DNA of 28,351 bases. It comes from a virus. A model generated the notes under the pieces. That model did not search any database and was not told the DNA's origin. It saw only the letters and a program-made list of their open reading frames with translations. Positions 633 to 13,158 of this stretch are shown piece by piece (the first letter of the stretch is position 1; each line of letters opens with the position of its first letter). The translations under genes and the position numbers were made by a program. The stretch is from positions 1 to 28,351 of the IMG/VR virus record IMGVR_UViG_3300043411_000238. One strand, written 5' to 3'.

Positions 633-796
633 GTGCGCGGCACCCGTGGCAAGTACGTATGCTGGCGACGATAGCATTTCTTACCGTCACGAATGAATGG
701 GCAACGTAGCGAGTCGCGCTGATGATCTTCCATCGCTTGACCGCACCGGGTGCATTTGGGGATGCGTAGATCGAGTGCCGCCTGTATGTTATCCAT
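629..796 (-). CDS. Small zinc-ribbon protein
   Basis: A 55-residue ORF beginning MDNIQAALDLRIPKCTRCG. It carries CxxC at residues 15-18 and two further cysteines at 32 (RCPF) and 41 (KCYRR), a four-Cys zinc-ribbon pattern. Both ends are coupled: its ATG overlaps the stop of the TetR-like gene (ATGGATAA) and its stop overlaps the ATG of the next gene (ATGA). That double overlap is the best evidence that it is real, because the ORF is short. It is probably a small nucleic-acid- or protein-binding accessory factor; the exact role is unknown. Confidence 0.65.
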   Translation of the reverse strand: MDNIQAALDLRIPKCTRCGQAMEDHQRDSLRCPFIRDGKKCYRRQHTYLPRVPRT

Positions 797-1097
797 GATG
801 AATCGACTCCGCGGCAGCGCGACGTAGCGTTTCGTCGGCCTTCATCGCACGACTGTCACGGATCGCGATACCCTGGGCGACAACGACAGCATCACGCAGC
901 CGGATCGCCTCGCCCATGATGGCGCGACGCATCTGTGGCATGGTGCCGAATACATGCGATACGGTAGCAGGACTGCACCGCGCTGCATCGGCGATCTGCT
1001 CCCGTGACAGCGCAGCGTACCCGTGCTTGTGCGCGAGTTTGATCGCAGCGGCGAGTATTTCCGCCCCGCGTGTATCCGGTCGTCGAATTCGTTTCAT
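789..1097 (-). CDS. Small TetR-like helix-turn-helix DNA-binding protein
   Basis: A 102-residue protein. Residues 13-60 resemble a TetR N-terminal DNA-binding domain: ILAAAIKLAHKHGYAALSRE (helix 1 and turn), IADAARCSPATVSHVFG (recognition HTH), then MPQMRRAIMGEAI (helix 4). Normal TetR proteins are about 200 residues with a ligand-binding C-terminal domain. Here only about 40 residues follow, so it is a DNA-binding domain with a short helical tail. AGGAAA precedes the ATG, which overlaps the upstream stop (ATGA). It is the second gene after a promoter containing the inverted repeat TATTGAC-N6-GTCAATA, so autoregulation and control of the other two copies is a reasonable inference, not shown by sequence. 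Confidence 0.75.
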   Translation of the reverse strand: MKRIRRPDTRGAEILAAAIKLAHKHGYAALSREQIADAARCSPATVSHVFGTMPQMRRAIMGEAIRLRDAVVVAQGIAIRDSRAMKADETLRRAAAESIHHG

Positions 1098-2151: not shown

Positions 2152-3140
2152 GACGTATGCTCCATGTATGATTTAATTATTTCCGCCGCGACTTGGGGAA
2201 CGATCGCATTGCCGTATCCGCGCAGCTTGACCACTCTTTCGGATACCCCATTAGCCAACGGGAATGTTCCGGGTTCAACGCACCGCCACTTTGCATCCCT
2301 GCACAGCAGCCAATCAGCATCTCGCCATACGCCGTTAGTCGGGCGGGCTGCATCGCTACCACTTGCTGCGACAGCGGAACCCCCGTGTCTGCTGGTCGTG
2401 GAGGTAGCGAACCCCTGCTGTGATCCTGCGCTGTCGGGGATACCCACCCGGCAAGATTCGCCTGCCGCCCCAATTGATCCAGTCGTTCCTTGCCGCACGA
2501 TCGAGGTTTGATGTCCGATCCCGAATCCTTCCAGTCTCTTGTCGTCGTCGTCGTCCATGCCACAAGCTCCACTGTTCTCCGACTGCTGTCGTTGTTCCCC
2601 GCAGGGCTGTTCCCATTCTGTGCGGGCGTCCCTGCCATTGGTGTCGGCCACGAACCACAGTCTGTCTCTGATATGCGGTGCGCCGACGCCCGCAGCCGGT
2701 ACACAGACCGCCCCGACGGAGTAATCAGCCGCTTCCATATCAGCTTGAACAAGGTCGAGCCAACCGTGACCAATCGCAGCGCCAACCTGTTCTCCAAAGA
2801 CGACTGAAGGTCGACACTGGTCGATGAGATGGAACCATGCGGGCCATAAGTGCCGCTCGTCAGCAAACCCTGCACCTTTGCCTGCCGCGCTGAAAGACTG
2901 ACATGGGCAACTACCCGTCCAGACGCGCCTATCGTCAGGCCATCCGGCGAGGCGCAAGGCGAGGCTCCATCCGCCAATCCCTGCGAAGAAGTGACATTGC
3001 GTGTATCCCCTGAGTTCATCTGGTGTGACATCTTCGATCGATCGTTCATCTACATCCCCGTATGCTATGTGTCCGTTTCTGATTAACTCGCGCAGCCATT
3101 CCGCAGCCTTCGGATCGAGTTCGTTATAATACGCCGTCAT
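2148..3140 (-). CDS. C5-cytosine DNA methyltransferase (phage copy)
   Basis: A 330-residue protein with the C5-methyltransferase motifs in order: motif I FFAGIGGW (51-58), motif IV PCQSFS (79-84, nucleophile Cys80), motif VI GEQV (116-119; Gln replaces the usual Asn), motif [13 protein letters not shown] (158-166), and C-terminal [12 protein letters not shown]. It would methylate cytosine in a short DNA target, most likely to shield phage DNA from host restriction. The N-terminal [20 protein letters not shown] extension is typical of a phage subgroup. The ATG overlaps the helicase stop (ATGA), with an AGAGGG ribosome-binding site. A 290-codon ORF lies within it in the +1 frame; the variable region between motifs VIII and IX has an unusual Gly/Ser/Asp-rich composition, as expected if two frames are constrained. 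Confidence 0.92.
2177..3049 (-). CDS. Possible overlapping gene inside the C5 methyltransferase (+1 frame)
   Basis: A 290-codon ORF in the +1 frame of the methyltransferase gene, from ATG 3049 (91 bases after its start), with GGGG seven bases upstream. It contains [20 protein letters not shown], a WPTP motif, and near the C-terminus [16 protein letters not shown]. The cassette C5 methyltransferases carry ORFs with matching motifs in the same +1 frame. I recall many database 'hypothetical proteins' with WPTP repeats and 'LNP..WLMG.P..W' endings from phage and prophage loci. Expression is unproven; it could be a by-product of the shared methyltransferase sequence. Confidence 0.45.
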
Positions 3141-4924: not shown

Positions 4925-4955
4925 TATTGACAACACCGTCAATATAAATTATATT
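4925..4955 (+). promoter_or_regulatory. Sigma70-type rightward early promoter with operator (site 2)
   Basis: TTGACA (4927-4932), exactly 17 bases, TATATT (4950-4955). The inverted repeat TATTGAC-AACACC-GTCAATA (4925-4944) covers the -35 box and most of the spacer. It drives the 5010 gene and downstream rightward genes. A repressor bound here would block RNA polymerase directly. Confidence 0.82.
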
Positions 4956-6737: not shown

Positions 6738-7538
6738 ATGACTGAAATTCTTTTCCCCGTTGGCCGTATGATCGGTGGTTCGATGTACAAGCCGAACCCG
6801 AAGAAAGACAATTTCGGCAAGCCCGTACTCGACAAGACGGGTCAGCCTGTAACATCGTTTTCGTTCGGCGTCGCGCTGCCGAAAACGCAGCAAGACTGGC
6901 GTCTTGAGTCGTGGGGCGCGCAGATCCTCGCAGTTGGTCAAGCCGCATATCCGGGAATCTGCAACACGCCGTCGTTCGCCTGGAAGATTATCGACGGCGA
7001 CTCGCAAGTGCCGAACAAGAAAAACCGCAAACCGTGCGATCAAGAGGGGTATCCGGGTAATTGGGTATTGTGGTTCTCTCAGTCGTGGGCACCCAAGCTG
7101 GTCAATGCGAACGGATCACAGGAACTCACCGAGCCGAATGCAGTGATCGCAGGCTATTACGTCCAGGTATTCGGTGGAGTTAAGAGCAACGCGCCGTCGC
7201 CGACGCCCGGTGTGTATCTGAATCCGATCGCCGTTGCACTCTCAGGATATGGTACGCCGATCGAAACGTCGAGCGTCGATACTACGGCAGTCGGATTCGG
7301 TGCATCGCCCGCACCCGCCGGGATGTCAGCAACGCCCGTGGGGATGATGCCACCTGTCGCACCTGTCGCACCTGTCGCACCTATCGCACCCGCAGCACCG
7401 AACACGTCGTTCCTGCAACCGCCATCCGCGCCATCCGCGCACCAGATGACCCCGGCTGCGAACGGTGTCACGTATGAGGCGTATGTCGCGCAGGGATGGT
7501 CTGAGGCGATGTTGCGCCAGCATGGGTTGATGGTCTGA
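6738..7538 (+). CDS. DUF2815 protein (ssDNA-binding-like)
   Basis: A 266-residue protein beginning MTEILFPVGRMIGGSMYKPN. Residues 1-160 match the DUF2815 pattern (VTSFSFGVALPKTQQDW, WGAQILAVGQAAYP, AGYYVQVFGGV, GVYLNPIAVAL), which is predicted to have an OB-like single-stranded-DNA-binding fold. The C-terminal 90 residues are a flexible Pro/Ala linker with PVAP repeats and a final helix YEAYVAQGWSEAMLRQHG. The usual DUF2815 length is near 180-200, so the tail is an extension. It stops nine bases before the first attC site, so the cassette insertion lies immediately behind it and separates it from the polymerase genes. Confidence 0.88.
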   Translation: MTEILFPVGRMIGGSMYKPNPKKDNFGKPVLDKTGQPVTSFSFGVALPKTQQDWRLESWGAQILAVGQAAYPGICNTPSFAWKIIDGDSQVPNKKNRKPCDQEGYPGNWVLWFSQSWAPKLVNANGSQELTEPNAVIAGYYVQVFGGVKSNAPSPTPGVYLNPIAVALSGYGTPIETSSVDTTAVGFGASPAPAGMSATPVGMMPPVAPVAPVAPIAPAAPNTSFLQPPSAPSAHQMTPAANGVTYEAYVAQGWSEAMLRQHGLMV

Positions 7539-7547
7539 GGCGATGCG

Positions 7548-7625
7548 GCCCAACGCACTAGCTCAGGGGCGACCGGAATGACGCGCAGCGGCATTGAGGG
7601 CGTCCGCTTGAGCGAACGGTTAGGC
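7548..7625 (+). other. attC site a (complete)
   Basis: Left box GCCCAAC (7548-7554) and right box GTTAGGC (7619-7625) match RYYYAAC and GTTRRRY exactly. Inner arms GCTCAGGGGCG and CGTCCGCTTGAGC pair imperfectly, with extra bases in the right arm. No cassette ORF precedes it; phage DNA starts within nine bases. Confidence 0.8.
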
Positions 7626-7653
7626 CAGGTGGCAGAAGCGAAAGGAGAGACGT

Positions 7654-7983
7654 ATGCTGTGGTTTGACGTGCTGGCGATTGGTACGCCAGCGATGGTGCT
7701 GGTGATGAGTGCGGCCTACTACGCCGGGCGCCGCCGCGAACGCCGCGAGTTGTGGCCAGAGGCTGCGAAAGCCGGGCGCTACAAGATGGTATGCCGCAAC
7801 GTGCTGACGTGGTGTTGCCAAGACGAATTCCGGGCTGCGCGACTGGTGGCGGGGCACGTCATGGACTACGGCGAAGGCGTGGGGCCGATCAACGCCGGAA
7901 CGCCGCATGGCGACGAGACGTGCACCGTGAATGGACTGCGCGAGCAACTGCGCCGCGTGAACCGCACGGCGCCTAACGTTTGA
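7654..7983 (+). CDS. Cassette 1 ORF: small membrane-anchored protein, unknown
   Basis: A 109-residue protein; AAAGGAGAG ends five bases before ATG 7654. The N-terminus MLWFDVLAIGTPAMVLVMSA is one membrane helix, followed by a strongly basic YYAGRRRERRE stretch, so the rest is probably cytoplasmic. A soluble part with CRNVLTWCCQDEF and a Gly/His-rich segment follows. The stop lies inside the left half of the next attC site, as is usual for cassette genes. I do not recognise the family. With DNA methyltransferases in the other cassettes a defence or counter-defence role is possible, but nothing in its sequence shows that. Confidence 0.6.
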   Translation: MLWFDVLAIGTPAMVLVMSAAYYAGRRRERRELWPEAAKAGRYKMVCRNVLTWCCQDEFRAARLVAGHVMDYGEGVGPINAGTPHGDETCTVNGLREQLRRVNRTAPNV

Positions 7984-8060
7984 CATAACCGGCGCTGGGA
8001 TTGTGCAAGTCGAGGGCGATATGAAGACGCATAACGCCAAGGTAAGCGGCGTGCCGCCAC
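7971..8060 (+). other. Remnants of two attC sites (left halves only)
   Basis: GCCTAAC (7971-7977) starts an attC-like left half behind cassette 1, but no matching GTTAGGC follows. A second left half begins at GCATAAC (8029-8035) with GGTAAGCGGC (8041-8050), nearly the same as the left arm of the complete site at 10019. Its right half is also missing. The frame between them, ending MKTHNAKVSGVPPQD, reads through the second left half like the end of cassette ORF 4 (GHNAQVSGGG). This looks like the scar of a lost cassette. Confidence 0.6.
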
Positions 8061-8077
8061 AGGACTAAAAGGGGGAG

Positions 8078-8632
8078 ATGAAGATGGAGCAACTGCAAGC
8101 GTTTGACGGAGGCACATGCGGCACGTCCGACTTGACCGACGTGTTAGGGGTTGGATCCGCACGGATGCACCCGCACGACAACAAGTTTCACACAGGCAAC
8201 GGAGAGGATGGAAAGCACTACTGGCTGACGCCGCCCGACCTGTACGCGCAACTGGACGCGGAATTCGGGTTTGACTTTGACCCGTGCCCATTCCCGAAGC
8301 CTGCCGACTTCGACGGCCTGACGTGCGAGTGGGGTCAGCGGAACTACGTGAACCCGCCTTTCGGATCCATCGTGCACCAGGGAAAGAAGAAGGGGCCGAC
8401 TGCCTGGATGCGCAAAGCGATTGAGGAACAGCGAAAAGGGAAACTGTCGGTCGTGGTGTACCCGGTGGACAAGTGGGTGCTGATGATGCTCGCGGCCACC
8501 GGAGCGCAGAACGTCCGCAACCTCGGTGATGTGAAGTGGTGCGCCACAGAGGACGGATCCGCAGGGAAAGGGACGGGGCGGCATATCGCGTGCTTCGTGC
8601 TGACCCCTAACGATGGAGGTAAGCGGCTTTAG
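8078..8632 (+). CDS. Cassette 2 ORF: phage-type N6-adenine DNA methyltransferase (Dam family)
   Basis: A 184-residue protein. After a 40-residue leader come YWLTPPDLYAQLDAEFGFDF, DPCPFP (about 69-74) and YVNPPFG (about 89-95, catalytic NPPF), then a helix TAWMRKAIEEQRKGK, VVYPVDKW and a C-terminal HIACFVL strand. This order is that of the phage DNA N-6-adenine methyltransferase family (PF05869 type), which modifies adenine and can protect phage DNA from restriction. GGGGGAG immediately precedes ATG 8078; ATG 8084 has better spacing and may be the true start. The stop lies inside the following attC site. Finding a phage-type enzyme in an integron cassette suggests traffic in both directions. 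Confidence 0.88.
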   Translation: MKMEQLQAFDGGTCGTSDLTDVLGVGSARMHPHDNKFHTGNGEDGKHYWLTPPDLYAQLDAEFGFDFDPCPFPKPADFDGLTCEWGQRNYVNPPFGSIVHQGKKKGPTAWMRKAIEEQRKGKLSVVVYPVDKWVLMMLAATGAQNVRNLGDVKWCATEDGSAGKGTGRHIACFVLTPNDGGKRL

Positions 8633-8655
8633 TCCGCTTGACCGCGTAGTTATAC
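8605..8655 (+). other. attC site c (complete, 51 bp)
   Basis: Left box CCCTAAC (8605-8611; first base departs from RYYYAAC), right box GTTATAC (8649-8655). Arms GGTAAGCGG (8618-8626) and TCCGCTTGACC (8633-8643) pair, with an extra C and an extra A unpaired in the right arm. The preceding ORF stops within the site. Confidence 0.8.
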
Positions 8656-8670
8656 GGCACTAGGAGGAAT

Positions 8671-9387
8671 ATGAAACATTTAGATTTATTTAGTGGTATA
8701 GGTGGTTTTGCTCTTGCAGCTCAGTGGGCTGGCATTGAAACGGTAGCCTTCTGCGAGATAGACAAGTTCTGCCATAAGGTTTTGCAGAAGAACTTTCCAA
8801 GGGTGCCAATACATGACGACATTAGAACTTTAAGAGGCGAGGATTATGCAGGAATTGACATCATCACAGGTGGATACCCGTGCCAGCCATTCAGCCTTGC
8901 AGGAAAGCGAAAAGGATCGGATGACGAACGCCACTTGTGGCCAGAAATGTTCCGCCTTGTGCGAGAAATCAAGCCCCGTTGGGTTGTTGGAGAAAATGTT
9001 GCTGGGCACATTACCTCTGGACTCGACGATGTTTGTGATGACTTGGAAAGCGAAAACTACGAAACGAGGACGTTTGTTTTTCCGGCTTTCGCCGTTGGGG
9101 CGAAGCATGGAAGGGAGAGGGTCTTTGTGGTGGCCAACTCCAAAAGCAAGCGACGCAATTATGGGCATGACTGCGAGAACGAGCGGAAGGCCGATAGAAC
9201 GGAGTACCCATCTGCAAACTATAGTGGGGCTTTCGGTCGGATGGAAACCGGGAGATGGGCACCTGAACCCAACGTGGGTAGAGTGGTTGATGGGGTTCCC
9301 AATCGGGTGGACAGAAATAGAGGACTCGGAAACGCAGTAGTTCCACAAGTGGCTTATGAGATACTGCGGTGCATTCGTGCCGTATAA
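8671..9387 (+). CDS. Cassette 3 ORF: C5-cytosine DNA methyltransferase
   Basis: A 238-residue enzyme. Motif I DLFSGIGGF (5-13), motif IV GGYPCQPFS (nucleophile Cys71), motif VI GENV (107-110), motif VIII GRERVFVVA (147-155), and motif IX/X region VPNRVDR and GNAVVPQVAYEIL. The variable target-recognition segment between VIII and IX is only about 50 residues, giving a minimal enzyme typical of phage-like C5 methyltransferases. AGGAGG lies seven bases before the ATG. Its opening is markedly AT-rich with codons such as TTA, GGT and ATA, unlike its GC-rich neighbours, pointing to a separate origin. The stop TAA is formed within the next attC box. It resembles cassette 5 closely in motif spacing. 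A second ORF overlaps it in the +1 frame. Confidence 0.93.
   Translation: MKHLDLFSGIGGFALAAQWAGIETVAFCEIDKFCHKVLQKNFPRVPIHDDIRTLRGEDYAGIDIITGGYPCQPFSLAGKRKGSDDERHLWPEMFRLVREIKPRWVVGENVAGHITSGLDDVCDDLESENYETRTFVFPAFAVGAKHGRERVFVVANSKSKRRNYGHDCENERKADRTEYPSANYSGAFGRMETGRWAPEPNVGRVVDGVPNRVDRNRGLGNAVVPQVAYEILRCIRAV
8846..9340 (+). CDS. Possible overlapping gene inside cassette 3 methyltransferase (+1 frame)
   Basis: A 164-codon ORF in the +1 frame of the methyltransferase, with GCGAGG just upstream of ATG 8846. It contains MTWKAKTTKRGRLFFRLSP, WWPTPKASD and a C-terminal LNPTWVEWLMGFPIGWTE. These motifs recur in the +1 frames of the other two C5 methyltransferase genes. Between cassettes 3 and 5, I count 18 of 27 identical residues for this frame from TWKA to EGxG, against 15 of 26 in the methyltransferase frame over the same DNA. 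Real expression is uncertain. Confidence 0.45.
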   Translation: MQELTSSQVDTRASHSALQESEKDRMTNATCGQKCSALCEKSSPVGLLEKMLLGTLPLDSTMFVMTWKAKTTKRGRLFFRLSPLGRSMEGRGSLWWPTPKASDAIMGMTARTSGRPIERSTHLQTIVGLSVGWKPGDGHLNPTWVEWLMGFPIGWTEIEDSETQ

Positions 9388-9437
9388 CGGCTGAATTCAG
9401 CGGCGGCGAAGCCGTCCGCTGGAATGATTGGTTATGC
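9382..9437 (+). other. attC site d (complete, 56 bp)
   Basis: Left box GTATAAC (9382-9388), right box GTTATGC (9431-9437). Arms CAGCGGCGGC (9398-9407) and GCCGTCCGCTG (9411-9421) close on a GAA loop, with one unpaired A in the right arm and a second extra base just outside. These unpaired bases mark the recombining strand in attC hairpins. Confidence 0.88.
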
Positions 9438-9461
9438 CGCACGTATTACAAGGAAGGAAAC

Positions 9462-10067
9462 ATGATGACAGTTGCCGTACTTTTTGCACGCGCTGACAGC
9501 CACTACAAGGCGCTGCCAGGGTGTGACGTCTGGGACATTGAGCGGGACGCAAGGCTCTGGCCGGGTGGTTGCAGTGTGATAGCACACCCGCCGTGCAGGG
9601 CGTGGGGAAGGCTGCGCCAGTTTGCAAAGCCGCGACCTGGTGAAAAGGAGTTAGCGATTTTGGCTGTTGCGAACGTGCGCAGGTTTGGCGGAGTGCTGGA
9701 ACACCCGGCAGAAAGCTCGCTGTGGATTGACCAGCGGTTGCCGCGACCCGGTGAGTTCCCCGACGAGTTCGGCGGCTGGTCGATGGAGATTGAGCAATAC
9801 CATTGGGGGCACCGTGCGGAGAAAGCGACCTGGTTGTATGTGGTTGGCTGTGAACCGTTCGACGTGCCACCGATGCCGCGCAGAACTGGAAAGGCAACGC
9901 ACTGCATACGACCAACGAAGAAATACCCGCGCTTGCCATCAGTGACAAAGGCAGAGCGGGAACACACCCCCCCGGAGCTTGCTGCTTGGCTCGTTGAGCT
10001 GGCAGGACGCTGCAAGGGGCATAACGCCCAGGTAAGCGGCGGCGGTGCTTTTCCGCCGTCCGCTTGA
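9462..10067 (+). CDS. Cassette 4 ORF: conserved protein, possible distant cytosine-methyltransferase relative
   Basis: A 201-residue protein beginning MMTVAVLFARADSHYKALPG; AAGGAAGGAAA precedes ATG 9462, so the longer upstream frame that begins inside the attC is not used. Conserved-looking blocks: GCDVWDIERDARLWPGG, AHPPCRAWGRLRQFA (about 41-55), GGVLEHPAESSLW, and a C-terminal TPPELAAWLVELA helix. The PPC block followed by an E-x-P block resembles motifs IV (PPC) and VI (ENP) of some divergent C5-methyltransferase-like families, but a clear SAM-binding motif I is not visible. The last 15 residues are encoded by the following attC. Proteins of this type occur in proteobacterial phages and prophages as far as I recall. 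Function unproven. Confidence 0.7.
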   Translation: MMTVAVLFARADSHYKALPGCDVWDIERDARLWPGGCSVIAHPPCRAWGRLRQFAKPRPGEKELAILAVANVRRFGGVLEHPAESSLWIDQRLPRPGEFPDEFGGWSMEIEQYHWGHRAEKATWLYVVGCEPFDVPPMPRRTGKATHCIRPTKKYPRLPSVTKAEREHTPPELAAWLVELAGRCKGHNAQVSGGGAFPPSA

Positions 10068-10081
10068 CCGACGTGTTATGC
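10019..10081 (+). other. attC site e (complete, 63 bp)
   Basis: Left box GCATAAC (10019-10025), right box GTTATGC (10075-10081). Arms GGTAAGCGGCGGCGG (10031-10045) and CCGCCGTCCGCTTGACC (10053-10069) form a 15-bp stem with two unpaired bases (C and A) in the right arm and a TGCTTTT loop. The best-formed site of the array. Confidence 0.9.
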
Positions 10082-10090
10082 GTTTTGACT

Positions 10091-10774
10091 ATGAGACACC
10101 TAGACCTTTTTTCAGGGATCGGCGGTTTTGCACTGGCTGCGAAGTGGGCCGGGTTTGAAACCGTTGGGTTCTGTGAGCAAGATGATTTTTGTAAGTCGGT
10201 GCTGGCGGCACGGTGGCCGGGTGTGCCGATACATAACGATGTGAGGGATTTAGATGGGCGATTGTTTCGAGGACTTGAACTTGTCACAGGTGGATACCCG
10301 TGCCAACCGTTTAGCAGCAGTGGGAAAAGACTTGGCGCAGAAGATGACCGCCACCTCTGGCCGGAGATGCGCCGAATTATTGAGCAAGCAAGACCAACTT
10401 GGGTGGTATCTGAAAATGTTGCTGGTCACATCACGATGGGCCTCGACGACGTGCTCTCTGACTTGGAAAGCCTCGACTACGCCGCGAGGGCGGTTGTTAT
10501 TCCGGCTTGTGCCGTCGGCGCGAACCATAGAAGGCAAAGGGTGTGGGTTATTGCCCACACCACAGAGTTCGGATTGGGTGACAACATACCGACCACGCGA
10601 CACCACCCTCCGCCGCACATTTGGGGGGAATGGCAAGAGTGGGAGGATAAACCCACGATTCTTGGAACGGATGATGGGCTACCCAATAGGGTGGACAGAA
10701 TTGCCGCCATCGGAAATGCAATAGTTCCGCAAGTTGCTTACGAGCTACTGCGGGTGATGACGCATAACAAGTAA
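10091..10774 (+). CDS. Cassette 5 ORF: C5-cytosine DNA methyltransferase
   Basis: A 227-residue enzyme starting MRHLDLFSGIGGFALAAKWA. ATG 10091 is chosen over an upstream ATG at 10064 because motif I sits three residues in, as in cassette 3, and the upstream start lies inside the attC. Motifs: DLFSGIGGF, GGYPCQPFS (Cys71), SENV (107-110), RRQRVWVIA, LPNRVDR and [13 protein letters not shown]. The target-recognition segment is about 45 residues and differs from cassette 3, suggesting another target sequence. There is no clear ribosome-binding site. The C-terminus MTHNK reads into the truncated final attC box. It lies at the edge of the insertion, just before the phage polymerase operon. Confidence 0.92.
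   Translation: MRHLDLFSGIGGFALAAKWAGFETVGFCEQDDFCKSVLAARWPGVPIHNDVRDLDGRLFRGLELVTGGYPCQPFSSSGKRLGAEDDRHLWPEMRRIIEQARPTWVVSENVAGHITMGLDDVLSDLESLDYAARAVVIPACAVGANHRRQRVWVIAHTTEFGLGDNIPTTRHHPPPHIWGEWQEWEDKPTILGTDDGLPNRVDRIAAIGNAIVPQVAYELLRVMTHNK
10254..10724 (+). CDS. Possible overlapping gene inside cassette 5 methyltransferase (+1 frame)
   Basis: A 156-codon ORF in the +1 frame, with GAGGG seven bases before ATG 10254, which is good ribosome-binding-site spacing. It carries LTWKASTTPRGRLLFRLVP, LLPTPQSSD and a C-terminal INPRFLERMMGYPIGWTE, matching the +1-frame ORFs in the other two C5 methyltransferase genes. The methyltransferase has no obvious initiation signal of its own, whereas this inner ORF does. 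Expression still needs evidence. Confidence 0.45.
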   Translation: MGDCFEDLNLSQVDTRANRLAAVGKDLAQKMTATSGRRCAELLSKQDQLGWYLKMLLVTSRWASTTCSLTWKASTTPRGRLLFRLVPSARTIEGKGCGLLPTPQSSDWVTTYRPRDTTLRRTFGGNGKSGRINPRFLERMMGYPIGWTELPPSEMQ

Positions 10775-10801: not shown

Positions 10802-11113
10802 ATGTACCGACTGACTAAAAAAGCCGCAGCACAGCGTACCCGCCGTCTGGAATCCATGCGGCGAGGCAAGGATGCTTCCCGCATGGCTCGCTCGGCTGAA
10901 GAGCGAGCGCCCGAACTACCTGCGCTTCGCCGTCAGATAATCATCCGCGATTTTGATTTCGGCGAGACAATCCACACGCTCGACCTCTACAAGTCGGATC
11001 GACGAGATTGTTATCGCGTGCTGGTCGACGGCAAGCCGTGGAAGGATCGTATCGGCTGGTCGGCAATCCTCGCCGGGTTACGCAAAAGTATGCCGAGGGT
11101 AGGTGCAGAATGA
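10802..11113 (+). CDS. Conserved phage protein upstream of DNA polymerase
   Basis: A 103-residue protein. A basic N-terminus (MYRLTKKAAAQRTRRLESMR) precedes a compact domain: LRRQIIIRDFDFGETIHTLD, LYKSDRRDCYRVLVDGKPWK, RIGWSAILAGLRKSMPR. I recall this domain in proteobacterial phage replication modules as a protein of unknown function. AAGGT precedes ATG 10802. The stop overlaps the polymerase ATG (ATGA), so the two are translated together, which suggests a polymerase accessory protein. That is inferred from position only. Confidence 0.8.
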   Translation: MYRLTKKAAAQRTRRLESMRRGKDASRMARSAEERAPELPALRRQIIIRDFDFGETIHTLDLYKSDRRDCYRVLVDGKPWKDRIGWSAILAGLRKSMPRVGAE

Positions 11114-13158
11114 GACGAATCTGCGAATCCTGCGAAATGGGTTACACGTCGACCGCAACGACATGTCCGTGGTGCGGATGCGACGCCGCACTCAGTCACA
11201 CGTCGGACATCACATCCGTCATGGACACCGAGTGTTACGTCGATTACTGGCTGTGCATGTTTGAAACGGGCGAGGTGTTTCAACTGGCGCACGACATAAC
11301 GCTCGATATACCCGGCTTGCGCCGTGCGTTGTCCAGATACCGAGTCGTGACGTTTAACGGTCTGCATTACGACTTCCCGATCATTGCGCTGGCGCTGCAA
11401 GGTGCGACGACACAGATGTTGAAAGCTGCCAGCACCCGTATCATTGAAGGCAACGAGCAGCCGTGGCATATCACCGACGATCGGCTCGATTGGGTTGATC
11501 ATATTGACCTGTTCGATGTCGCACCTGGCATGTCATCGCTGAAAGCATACGGTGCGAAGATGCACAGCCGCAAATTGCAAGACCTGCCGATCCACCACAA
11601 CGCATCGATACGGTGGTGTGATCGCGTAGTGCTGCGCGAATACTGCCAGAACGATCTGCAAACGACCCGTGATCTGCTCGATTGGTTCCCGTCGCAGATC
11701 AAGATGCGCGAGGAAATGTCCGTCGAGTACGGTGTCGATCTGCGCTCGAAATCAGATCCGCAGATCGCTGAAGCGGCGATGAAATCGATGCTGCCGTTCA
11801 AGGTTGCAATACCGCCCGTTGTGCCAGGCGAATCGTTTTATTACAAGCCGCCCGCATGGATGAAGTTTCAGCATCTCGACGTCCTGGATCGAATCGTCGA
11901 ACACCCGTTCTATATCAATCATTCAGGCGGTGTAGCGGCACATATTGATAACCATCTGATCGATTGGGGTGACAAGGCGCAACGCCTCGACCATCACGGT
12001 AAATGGGTTACACGTCCCGCTGGATGGGTGCATCGTATGGTGACGATCGGCGAAACGAGTTACACGGTCGGCACGGGCGGTCTGCACAGCACCGAGTCGA
12101 ATGTGACGTTCCGCGAGACTGAAACACACCGGCTCATTTCGCCGGACGTTGCGAGTTACTATCCGTCGCTGCTCGTCAATCTCGGAATCTGCCCGAGTCA
12201 GATCGGCGAGATATTCCGCTCGACATATCGCGGGTGGTACGACACGCGCCTCGACGCGAAGGCGAAGGGTATCAAGAAACTGGCGAATAGTCTGAAGACG
12301 CTACTGAACGGCGTGTTCGGGAAACTCGGCAGCATGTGGTCGATATTCTTCGCACCGAAAGAATTGATACAGGTGACGATCACTGGCCAGCTCGCTCTAT
12401 TGATGCTGATCGAGATGATGGAAACGTGTGGCATCCCTGTCGTCAGTGCGAACACGGATGGTATCGTCGTGAATTGTCCGCGTTCGCTGGAACCGATATA
12501 TCGCGACATCATTCGCTGGTGGGAGAAGACGACCGGGTTCGTCATGGAAGACACGTATTTCCGCCTGCTGGCGTCGCGTGACGTGAATTCGTACATCTCG
12601 ATCACCACGGACGGCGAAACGAAGCTGAAGGGTGCGTTTGCGCCGGCAGAACCTGGCCCGTCTGGATGGCCGAACCCGACCGGCCAGATATGCGTCGATG
12701 CAGTCGTCGAATACCTGCGCACAGGTACGCCGATCGCCGATACGATTCGCGCTTGCACGGATATTCGACAGTTCATCTATGCGCGGAGTGTTAAAGGTGG
12801 CGGCTCGTATCTGGATCGACCGCAGATGCCACGCACGACGACACAACGTGCTATGCGTGCCATGCTCGAAGCAGTCGGATACGCGCACGATCTGCCGAAG
12901 GATGCACTCATTGCCTGCTACTCCGACCTACGCGAACGCACTCACGGTCGAGCCGAATATCTCGGCAAGGTGGTTCGGTGGTATTATGCCACGGGTTCGA
13001 CAGGTTGTATCCTTACGCCCGAAGGCGGCCTGGTTCCTCGCAGCGAAGGATGCCGACCCCTCATGACACTACCTGACGATGTGCCTGACGATATGGATTA
13101 CGACTGGTACGTTGCTGAAGCAAATTCGATACTGTGTGATATAGGAGTGACGAAATGA
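11110..13158 (+). CDS. Family B DNA polymerase with 3'-5' exonuclease domain
   Basis: A 682-residue protein; ATG 11110 overlaps the previous stop (ATGA) and follows AGGGTAGGTG, excluding the longer frame. It opens with a zinc ribbon, CESC...CPWC (5-22). The exonuclease motifs are DTE (39-41), FNGLHYDF (82-89) and YCQND (178-182). The polymerase motifs are A: DVASYYPSL (346-354), B: KKLANSLKTLLNGVFGKLG (389-407) and C: SANTDG (446-451, NTD in place of the usual DTD). It replicates phage DNA with proofreading. It is shorter than cellular family B enzymes, as usual for phages, and lacks the terminal-protein signature of protein-primed enzymes as far as I can see. Confidence 0.93.
   Translation: MRRICESCEMGYTSTATTCPWCGCDAALSHTSDITSVMDTECYVDYWLCMFETGEVFQLAHDITLDIPGLRRALSRYRVVTFNGLHYDFPIIALALQGATTQMLKAASTRIIEGNEQPWHITDDRLDWVDHIDLFDVAPGMSSLKAYGAKMHSRKLQDLPIHHNASIRWCDRVVLREYCQNDLQTTRDLLDWFPSQIKMREEMSVEYGVDLRSKSDPQIAEAAMKSMLPFKVAIPPVVPGESFYYKPPAWMKFQHLDVLDRIVEHPFYINHSGGVAAHIDNHLIDWGDKAQRLDHHGKWVTRPAGWVHRMVTIGETSYTVGTGGLHSTESNVTFRETETHRLISPDVASYYPSLLVNLGICPSQIGEIFRSTYRGWYDTRLDAKAKGIKKLANSLKTLLNGVFGKLGSMWSIFFAPKELIQVTITGQLALLMLIEMMETCGIPVVSANTDGIVVNCPRSLEPIYRDIIRWWEKTTGFVMEDTYFRLLASRDVNSYISITTDGETKLKGAFAPAEPGPSGWPNPTGQICVDAVVEYLRTGTPIADTIRACTDIRQFIYARSVKGGGSYLDRPQMPRTTTQRAMRAMLEAVGYAHDLPKDALIACYSDLRERTHGRAEYLGKVVRWYYATGSTGCILTPEGGLVPRSEGCRPLMTLPDDVPDDMDYDWYVAEANSILCDIGVTK

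What the first reader, a model, noticed from the sequence alone, without database searches (positions are those of the whole stretch)
7548..10768. Integron gene-cassette array of DNA methyltransferases inside a phage replication operon
Between DUF2815 (ends 7538) and the polymerase operon (10802 on) there are four complete attC sites, each with RYYYAAC-like and GTTAxxC boxes and imperfect arms. In the sites at 8605, 9382 and 10019 the right arm has an extra C and an extra A at the same two positions, the hallmark unpaired bases of attC hairpins. ORFs lie between them in one orientation and stop inside attC sites, as cassette genes do. Three encode DNA methyltransferases. Integron cassettes in a lytic-type phage genome are rare; a phage promoter with operator would drive them and no integrase is present. 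The phage may carry exchangeable anti-restriction cassettes, picked up from or delivered to host integrons.
Basis: partly seen in the sequence, partly recalled or inferred. Interest (0 to 1): 0.9.

Follow-up and report, generated by a model that had tools for sequence, protein, structure and literature searches.

The report
Phage cassettes with back-to-front attC sites
A phage carries five swappable integron-type gene cassettes, mostly DNA-methylating genes; unlike bacterial cassettes their recombination sites are reversed relative to the genes, and dozens of other phage contigs share this layout with counter-defence cargo, which suggests that phages trade their own separate pool of cassettes.

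Summary
The array is real. The insert (7554-10767) is five complete cassettes in the gap between DUF2815 and the DNA polymerase; several relatives have a short gap there, and none has attC. No integron integrase is present.
Across contigs with clear calls, viral arrays are 48 reversed to 5 canonical, bacterial 0 to 19. Pfam hits in viral arrays fall almost only on reversed-strand ORFs and are mostly counter-defence: DNA methylases, Mom, Lar, Acb2/Tad1. One phage array holds a 416/416-nt cassette duplication ending exactly at integrase cut points.
attC clusters with methyltransferases in virulent phages were published in 2023 (PMC9892861). I found no report of the reversed polarity or of a separate phage pool. 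Best reading: phage cassettes mobilised by a host-supplied integron integrase. Integrase activity, expression and restriction protection are inferred. New variant of a known kind.

The parts
7548..7625 (-). attC of cassette 1; its outer core 7548-7554 (GCCCAA|C = G|TTGGGC on minus) is the junction with the phage
   Evidence: CM R1 35.9 bits, E 8e-7
7654..7983 (+). cassette 1 ORF, 109 aa, no family match; upstream AGGAGAG
   Evidence: arm pairing scan; overlapping CM hit E 0.011
8165..8632 (+). cassette 2 ORF, Dam-like N6-adenine methyltransferase (phrog_111)
   Evidence: 83% nt identity to a plain phage gene in L123 that starts at the same ATG, similarity ending 11 and 3 bp from attC
8605..8655 (-). 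attC of cassette 3
   Evidence: CM 29.7 bits, E 2.7e-5
8671..9387 (+). cassette 3 ORF, C5-cytosine DNA methyltransferase; upstream AGGAGG
   Evidence: PF00145 E 2e-46
9382..9437 (-). attC of cassette 4
   Evidence: CM 49.8 bits, E 3.7e-10
9462..10067 (+). cassette 4 ORF ('HPPC' protein, phrog_12600, function unknown); predicted fold weakly resembles C5-MTases; its relatives are attC-bounded in several other phage contigs
10019..10081 (-). attC of cassette 5; 93% identical to an attC of phage contig L170, and by eye near-identical to sites in L126 and L138
   Evidence: CM 41.7 bits, E 3.2e-8
10091..10774 (+). cassette 5 ORF, C5-cytosine DNA methyltransferase
   Evidence: PF00145 E 3e-39
10762..10768 (-). 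hairpin-less outer end of the first cassette (attI-side junction, G|TTATGC on minus)
   Evidence: 7/7 pairing with 10075-10081
6738..7538 (+). flanking phage gene, DUF2815-type (Gp2.5-like ssDNA-binding) protein
10802..13158 (+). flanking phage genes: 103-aa ORF and DNA polymerase

Best explanation
The insert is a five-cassette, integrase-less attC array moved by integron-type site-specific recombination. It sits at a GTTRRRY-type core (G|TTGGGC on the minus strand) between two genes of the phage replication operon. Each cassette is one attC followed by one ORF with the attC inverted relative to the ORF, so the strand with the canonical bottom-strand fold is the coding strand. The ORFs mostly have ribosome-binding-site-like sequences of their own and are probably transcribed by read-through of the phage operon. 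An integron integrase supplied by the host recombines the sites, so that phages infecting integron-bearing hosts exchange these cassettes. The cargo (two C5-MTases, a Dam-like MTase, an MTase-fold-like protein and one unknown) probably modifies phage DNA against host restriction. Shown by sequence: the attC sites, their polarity, the cassette-unit logic, the insertion in a conserved operon, the absence of integrase in the record, and cut-point-exact cassette duplication in a related phage array. Inferred: host IntI in trans, transcription, and protection from restriction.
For: attC by an independent CM, all on minus. Cassette-end core pairing, including the outer core. In viral arrays an exact matching core lies beyond the attI-side attC in 40 of 51 cases against 2.3 expected; on the other side 15 of 52 against 2.4. 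Relatives keep helicase-DUF2800-DUF2815-polymerase order with a short gap in several and no attC. Polarity: viral contigs 21:1 reversed in the first set (one tie) and 27:4 in a second set from a different attC pattern (one tie), bacterial 0:19 (one tie); Fisher p 8e-11 for the first set against bacteria. All 28 attC hits in nine loci fetched by the cassette-4 protein are antisense to it. Family hits: reversed-strand ORFs up to 15 of 82 in the first set and 20 families in the second, same-strand 1 of 71 and 0 of 110; the bacterial control is opposite. L196 duplication: 416/416 identical from TTRRRY to its own attC G, flanks 55-61%; L136/L159 cassette 93% against flanks 52-53%. Integrase over cut-off in 1 of 33 viral records, the canonical array L142, against 14 of 17 bacterial genomes.
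Against: No expression, recombination or restriction data. The window's own cassettes are too diverged from other phages' to show a recent exchange. The 121-bp site scores weakly with the CM. Published isolate TJE1 has one weak attC in the canonical orientation. Polarity calls between attCs rest on ORF length plus family hits, not on transcripts, and an ORF-length call alone would misassign two of the four window intervals.
Confidence: 0.85

Rival explanations
1. An ordinary cluster of attC sites captured from a host integron, with canonical bacterial cassettes.
For: Hosts with the same attC type exist in Burkholderiales and Lysobacterales, and most carry an integron integrase.
Against: Bacterial cassettes are canonical (75:5 intervals) while viral ones are reversed (47:6 in the first set); bacterial cargo is acetyltransferases, glyoxalases and the like, with no DNA methylase among the 25 families shown.
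Confidence: 0.06
2. The hairpins are attC relics that are not recombined by an integrase; phage homologous or annealing recombination shuffles the modules.
For: The neighbour DUF2815 resembles an ssDNA-binding/annealing protein; no integrase is in the record.
Against: A 416/416 duplication bounded at the integrase cut points although the neighbouring attC arms differ by about 40%; cassette-end core pairing; core enrichment mainly on the attI side.
Confidence: 0.06
3. A chimeric metagenome assembly joining a phage contig to an integron fragment.
For: The record is a 28-kb metagenome fragment; cassette GC3 varies from 0.49 to 0.78; reads are not available.
Against: Both flanks belong to one conserved operon in the expected order, so two independent misjoins would be needed; many other contigs have the same arrangement, 13 of 39 with a terminase match.
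Confidence: 0.03

Closest known systems
CALINs in virulent phages (Qi et al. 2023, PMC9892861; TJE1, P12002L, PH101, MW202573)
   Same: attC clusters without integrase in phage genomes, several with DNA MTases; five of six tested phage attC sites were used by IntI1 in that paper.
   Different: The passages read do not report ORF/attC polarity reversal, a phage/bacterium polarity split or a wider counter-defence cargo. Re-scanned here, MW202573 is also reversed and TJE1 has one weak canonical site.
Sedentary chromosomal integrons of Burkholderiales and Lysobacterales
   Same: The same attC sequence type.
   Different: Integrase in most of the genomes, ORF in the same sense as attC, different cargo.
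Reverse integrons of Treponema denticola (PMC7691350)
   Same: An orientation anomaly within integrons.
   Different: There it is the integrase gene that is reversed relative to the cassettes; here the attC is inverted relative to the cassette ORF and there is no integrase.
Insertion of cassettes at genomic attG sites (Loot et al. 2024, as cited in PMC12444791)
   Same: Cassettes inserted at a core that is neither attI nor attC.
   Different: Here a phage target; the target core is inferred from the junctions only.

Membership tests
attC site | R''/R' cores (RYYYAAC...GTTRRRY) | tested here: met
   GTT/AAC invariant, the outer positions of some cores depart from the consensus
attC site | imperfect hairpin with extrahelical C and A in L'', recognised by a model of known attC sites | tested here: met
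   four sites strong, the 121-bp site weak
attC site | recombined by an integron integrase | not testable with these tools
   other phage attC sites were tested in PMC9892861
CALIN | two or more attC sites and no integron integrase nearby | tested here: met
   five attC; TIGR02249 absent from the 28-kb record
complete integron | intI, attI and Pc | tested here: not met
   no intI in the record, though the record is a fragment; attI and Pc not identified
canonical gene cassette | ORF in the same orientation as attC, attC at the 3' side of the ORF | tested here: not met
   five of five ORFs reversed in the window; polarity backed
reverse integron (Treponema) | intI transcribed in the same direction as the cassettes | tested here: not met
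   no intI
anti-restriction function | methylation that protects phage DNA from host restriction enzymes | not testable with these tools
   family assignment only

The most novel reading that the evidence does not exclude
Phages maintain their own cassette pool, separated from the bacterial one by polarity and dedicated to counter-defence genes (DNA MTases, Mom, Lar, Acb2/Tad1). The inversion is adaptive: captured by a host attI the genes would be antisense to Pc and stay silent, while in phages the recombinogenic strand is the coding strand, which may be the one exposed during phage replication.
Probability: 0.35. Interest if true: 0.95.

Novelty: new variant of a known kind. Interest (0 to 1): 0.82.

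Why it matters
Bacterial integrons are known to carry phage-defence genes (general knowledge, not tested here). These data point to a mirror image: phages with a modular, exchangeable set of counter-defence genes using the same kind of attC sites, kept apart from the bacterial pool by inverted polarity. It gives a simple test (strand preference in attC x attI assays, polarity in genomes) for how phages trade counter-defence genes. It also warns that cassette tools which assume ORF and attC on the same strand may mis-annotate such arrays, and it offers a source of new anti-defence genes, since most cassette ORFs match no family.

Tried and rejected
Rfam scan: no match. Folding single sites with DNA parameters was inconclusive for 7548 and 8605, because the imperfect arms fold weakly, so a covariance model was used. 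Cassette 4 in plasmids: no match. C5-MTase relatives in 80 viral loci have essentially no attC, so the association belongs to the cassette and not to the gene family. The 10762 site as a truncated attC: rejected in favour of a cassette-end core. Treponema-type reverse integron: rejected, since it is defined by integrase orientation. Mis-stranded covariance model: rejected because canonical bacterial arrays score in sense with the same model and because the L196 duplication and the attI-side cores support the same polarity. Isolated or complete phages carrying the cassette-4 family (fSU1, Doze, cta39025, a microvirus) have no attC hit near it. An isolate carrying the 10019 attC was sought in the phage collection: no match. 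P12002L gave no hit with the model; PH101 was not re-scanned.

Full report
What is there. The window is a 28,351-base IMG/VR virus record, a linear fragment. Between a DUF2815-type gene (ends 7538) and a 103-aa ORF plus DNA polymerase (from 10802) lie five ORFs on the plus strand. To test the attC claim without circularity I took 11 attC sites from class 1 integrons on plasmids and built a covariance model with the standard R and L box pairing. My own pairing scan finds the 121-bp site at 8029-8149 clearly.

The polarity. All hits are on the minus strand. In the class 1 attC sites the extra C and A lie in the left arm of the strand that carries the gene; here they lie in the left arm of the minus strand, whereas all five ORFs run on plus. 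Three lines of evidence agree. (1) The cassette-end cores: the seven bases that open each cassette should pair with the core of its own attC. They do so 6,7,7,7,7 of 7, including the lone core at 10762-10768, against 6,5,4,6,7 within sites. This pairing is by itself blind to polarity, but one end of the insert, the right one, has a core and no hairpin, as expected on the attI side of an array whose canonical direction is minus. The same asymmetry is general: 40 of 51 viral arrays have an exact matching core beyond the attI-side attC (2.3 expected), 15 of 52 beyond the other end (2.4 expected; undetected attC sites would add to both). (2) A phage array (L196) contains a cassette duplication that is 416/416 identical from the base after G|TT to the G of its own attC, with 55-61% identity outside; the fully shared attC is the one upstream of the ORF. 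(3) The model scores bacterial arrays with the same attC type in sense with their ORFs.

Phages against bacteria. An attC right-arm pattern found 39 viral contigs and 80 bacterial loci. For intervals where one strand's longest ORF clearly fills the space, with duplicated contigs and the isolate integron L142 left out and the cassette-4 loci added, viral contigs are 21 reversed, 1 canonical, 1 tie; bacterial loci 0, 19, 1 (Fisher p 8e-11). A second viral scan with a different attC pattern gave 27 reversed, 4 canonical, 1 tie; three of those four canonical contigs carry IMG identifiers of the isolate-genome type. Loci fetched through the cassette-4 protein, without reference to attC, contain 28 attC hits in nine loci, all antisense to the gene. 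Because ORF length can mislead in GC-rich DNA (it misassigns two of the four intervals in this window), I scanned both strands' ORFs against Pfam. Viral reversed ORFs give N6_N4_Mtase 7, C5 methylase 2, MT-A70 2, Mom 1, Lar 1 and two others in set 1, and N6_N4_Mtase 5, Acb2/Tad1 2, Mom, Lar, D12 methylase, RNA ligase and others in set 2. Viral same-strand ORFs give 1 of 71 and 0 of 110. Bacterial same-strand ORFs match 52 families such as acetyltransferases and glyoxalases, the reversed ones match 1. Terminase large-subunit matches occur in 13 of 39 array contigs, one of which is L142, and portal matches in two more. An integron integrase passes its cut-off in 1 of 33 viral records, the canonical array L142, and in 14 of 17 bacterial genomes. 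The two viral sets were selected by attC patterns, so their proportions are not unbiased estimates for all phages.

The insertion and its cargo. Relatives found through DUF2815 keep the order helicase, DUF2800, DUF2815, polymerase; in several the polymerase follows within tens to a few hundred bases, and none has an attC hit. Joining the two flanks of the window gives a single core, GCCCAAC, i.e. G|TTGGGC on minus, which is what an integrase-type insertion at a GTTRRRY target would leave. Cargo: Dam-like MTase (phrog_111), two C5-MTases (PF00145), the cassette-4 protein (phrog_12600, unknown; AlphaFold pLDDT 88; best PDB matches are C5-MTases, best E 1.2e-3 and TM about 0.4, so suggestive only) and one unknown. 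The Dam-like gene has an 83%-identical plain gene in another phage whose similarity ends 11 and 3 bp from the attC sites, which suggests that phage genes are turned into cassettes. Cassette GC3 ranges from 0.49 to 0.78 against 0.59-0.66 for neighbouring phage genes. Sigma-70-like sequences at 4927 and 6668 point into the array, but their number is close to that in shuffled sequence.

Known and new. attC clusters without integrase, in virulent phages, with MTases and with sites that IntI1 can use, were published by Qi et al. 2023 (PMC9892861). The passages of that paper read here mention divergent attC directions in P12002L but no general ORF/attC reversal, and further literature searches found none; the library holds open-licence papers only. 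Re-scanned, the published phage MW202573 has its attC sites on minus and its genes on plus, i.e. reversed; TJE1 has one weak canonical site. I therefore file the window as a new variant: a phage CALIN of reversed-polarity cassettes.

Limits. Nothing here shows recombination, transcription or protection from restriction. The adaptive meaning of the inversion is speculation. Deposited contigs were used as they are, without reads.

Noticed in passing
8846-9340 (+), 10254-10724 (+), 2177-3049 (-): All three C5-MTase genes of the window have a long open +1 frame, longer than expected from synonymous shuffles (p 0.0075, 0.0005, 0.0005). The three +1-frame proteins resemble each other and match a family of their own (phrog_1008), which suggests a conserved overprinted gene.
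   Followed up: partly
L437, L459 and other loci of the sets: Other reversed phage cassettes carry further counter-defence candidates: Acb2/Tad1-like sponges (L437, L459), Mom-like and Lar-like proteins and an RNA ligase (loci of these not resolved); most cassette ORFs match nothing.
   Followed up: partly
9462-10067 (+): The cassette-4 family also occurs in a filamentous-type Xanthomonas phage (fSU1), a microvirus, a small Rhodobacter phage and Mu-like Pseudomonas phages, in those scanned without attC, so the gene crosses very different phage types.
   Followed up: partly
L500: A Burkholderiales genome locus has a distant cassette-4 relative with five attC hits antisense to it; whether this is a prophage or a host array was not checked.
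   Followed up: no
789-1097 (-): Small protein whose sequence looks TetR-like (HTH, by eye), matching phrog_8723 of unknown function, in a phage fragment.
   Followed up: no
L121 5649-5868 and 7059-7278: Exact 220-bp direct repeat, one copy starting 18 bp from an attC in a viral contig.
   Followed up: no
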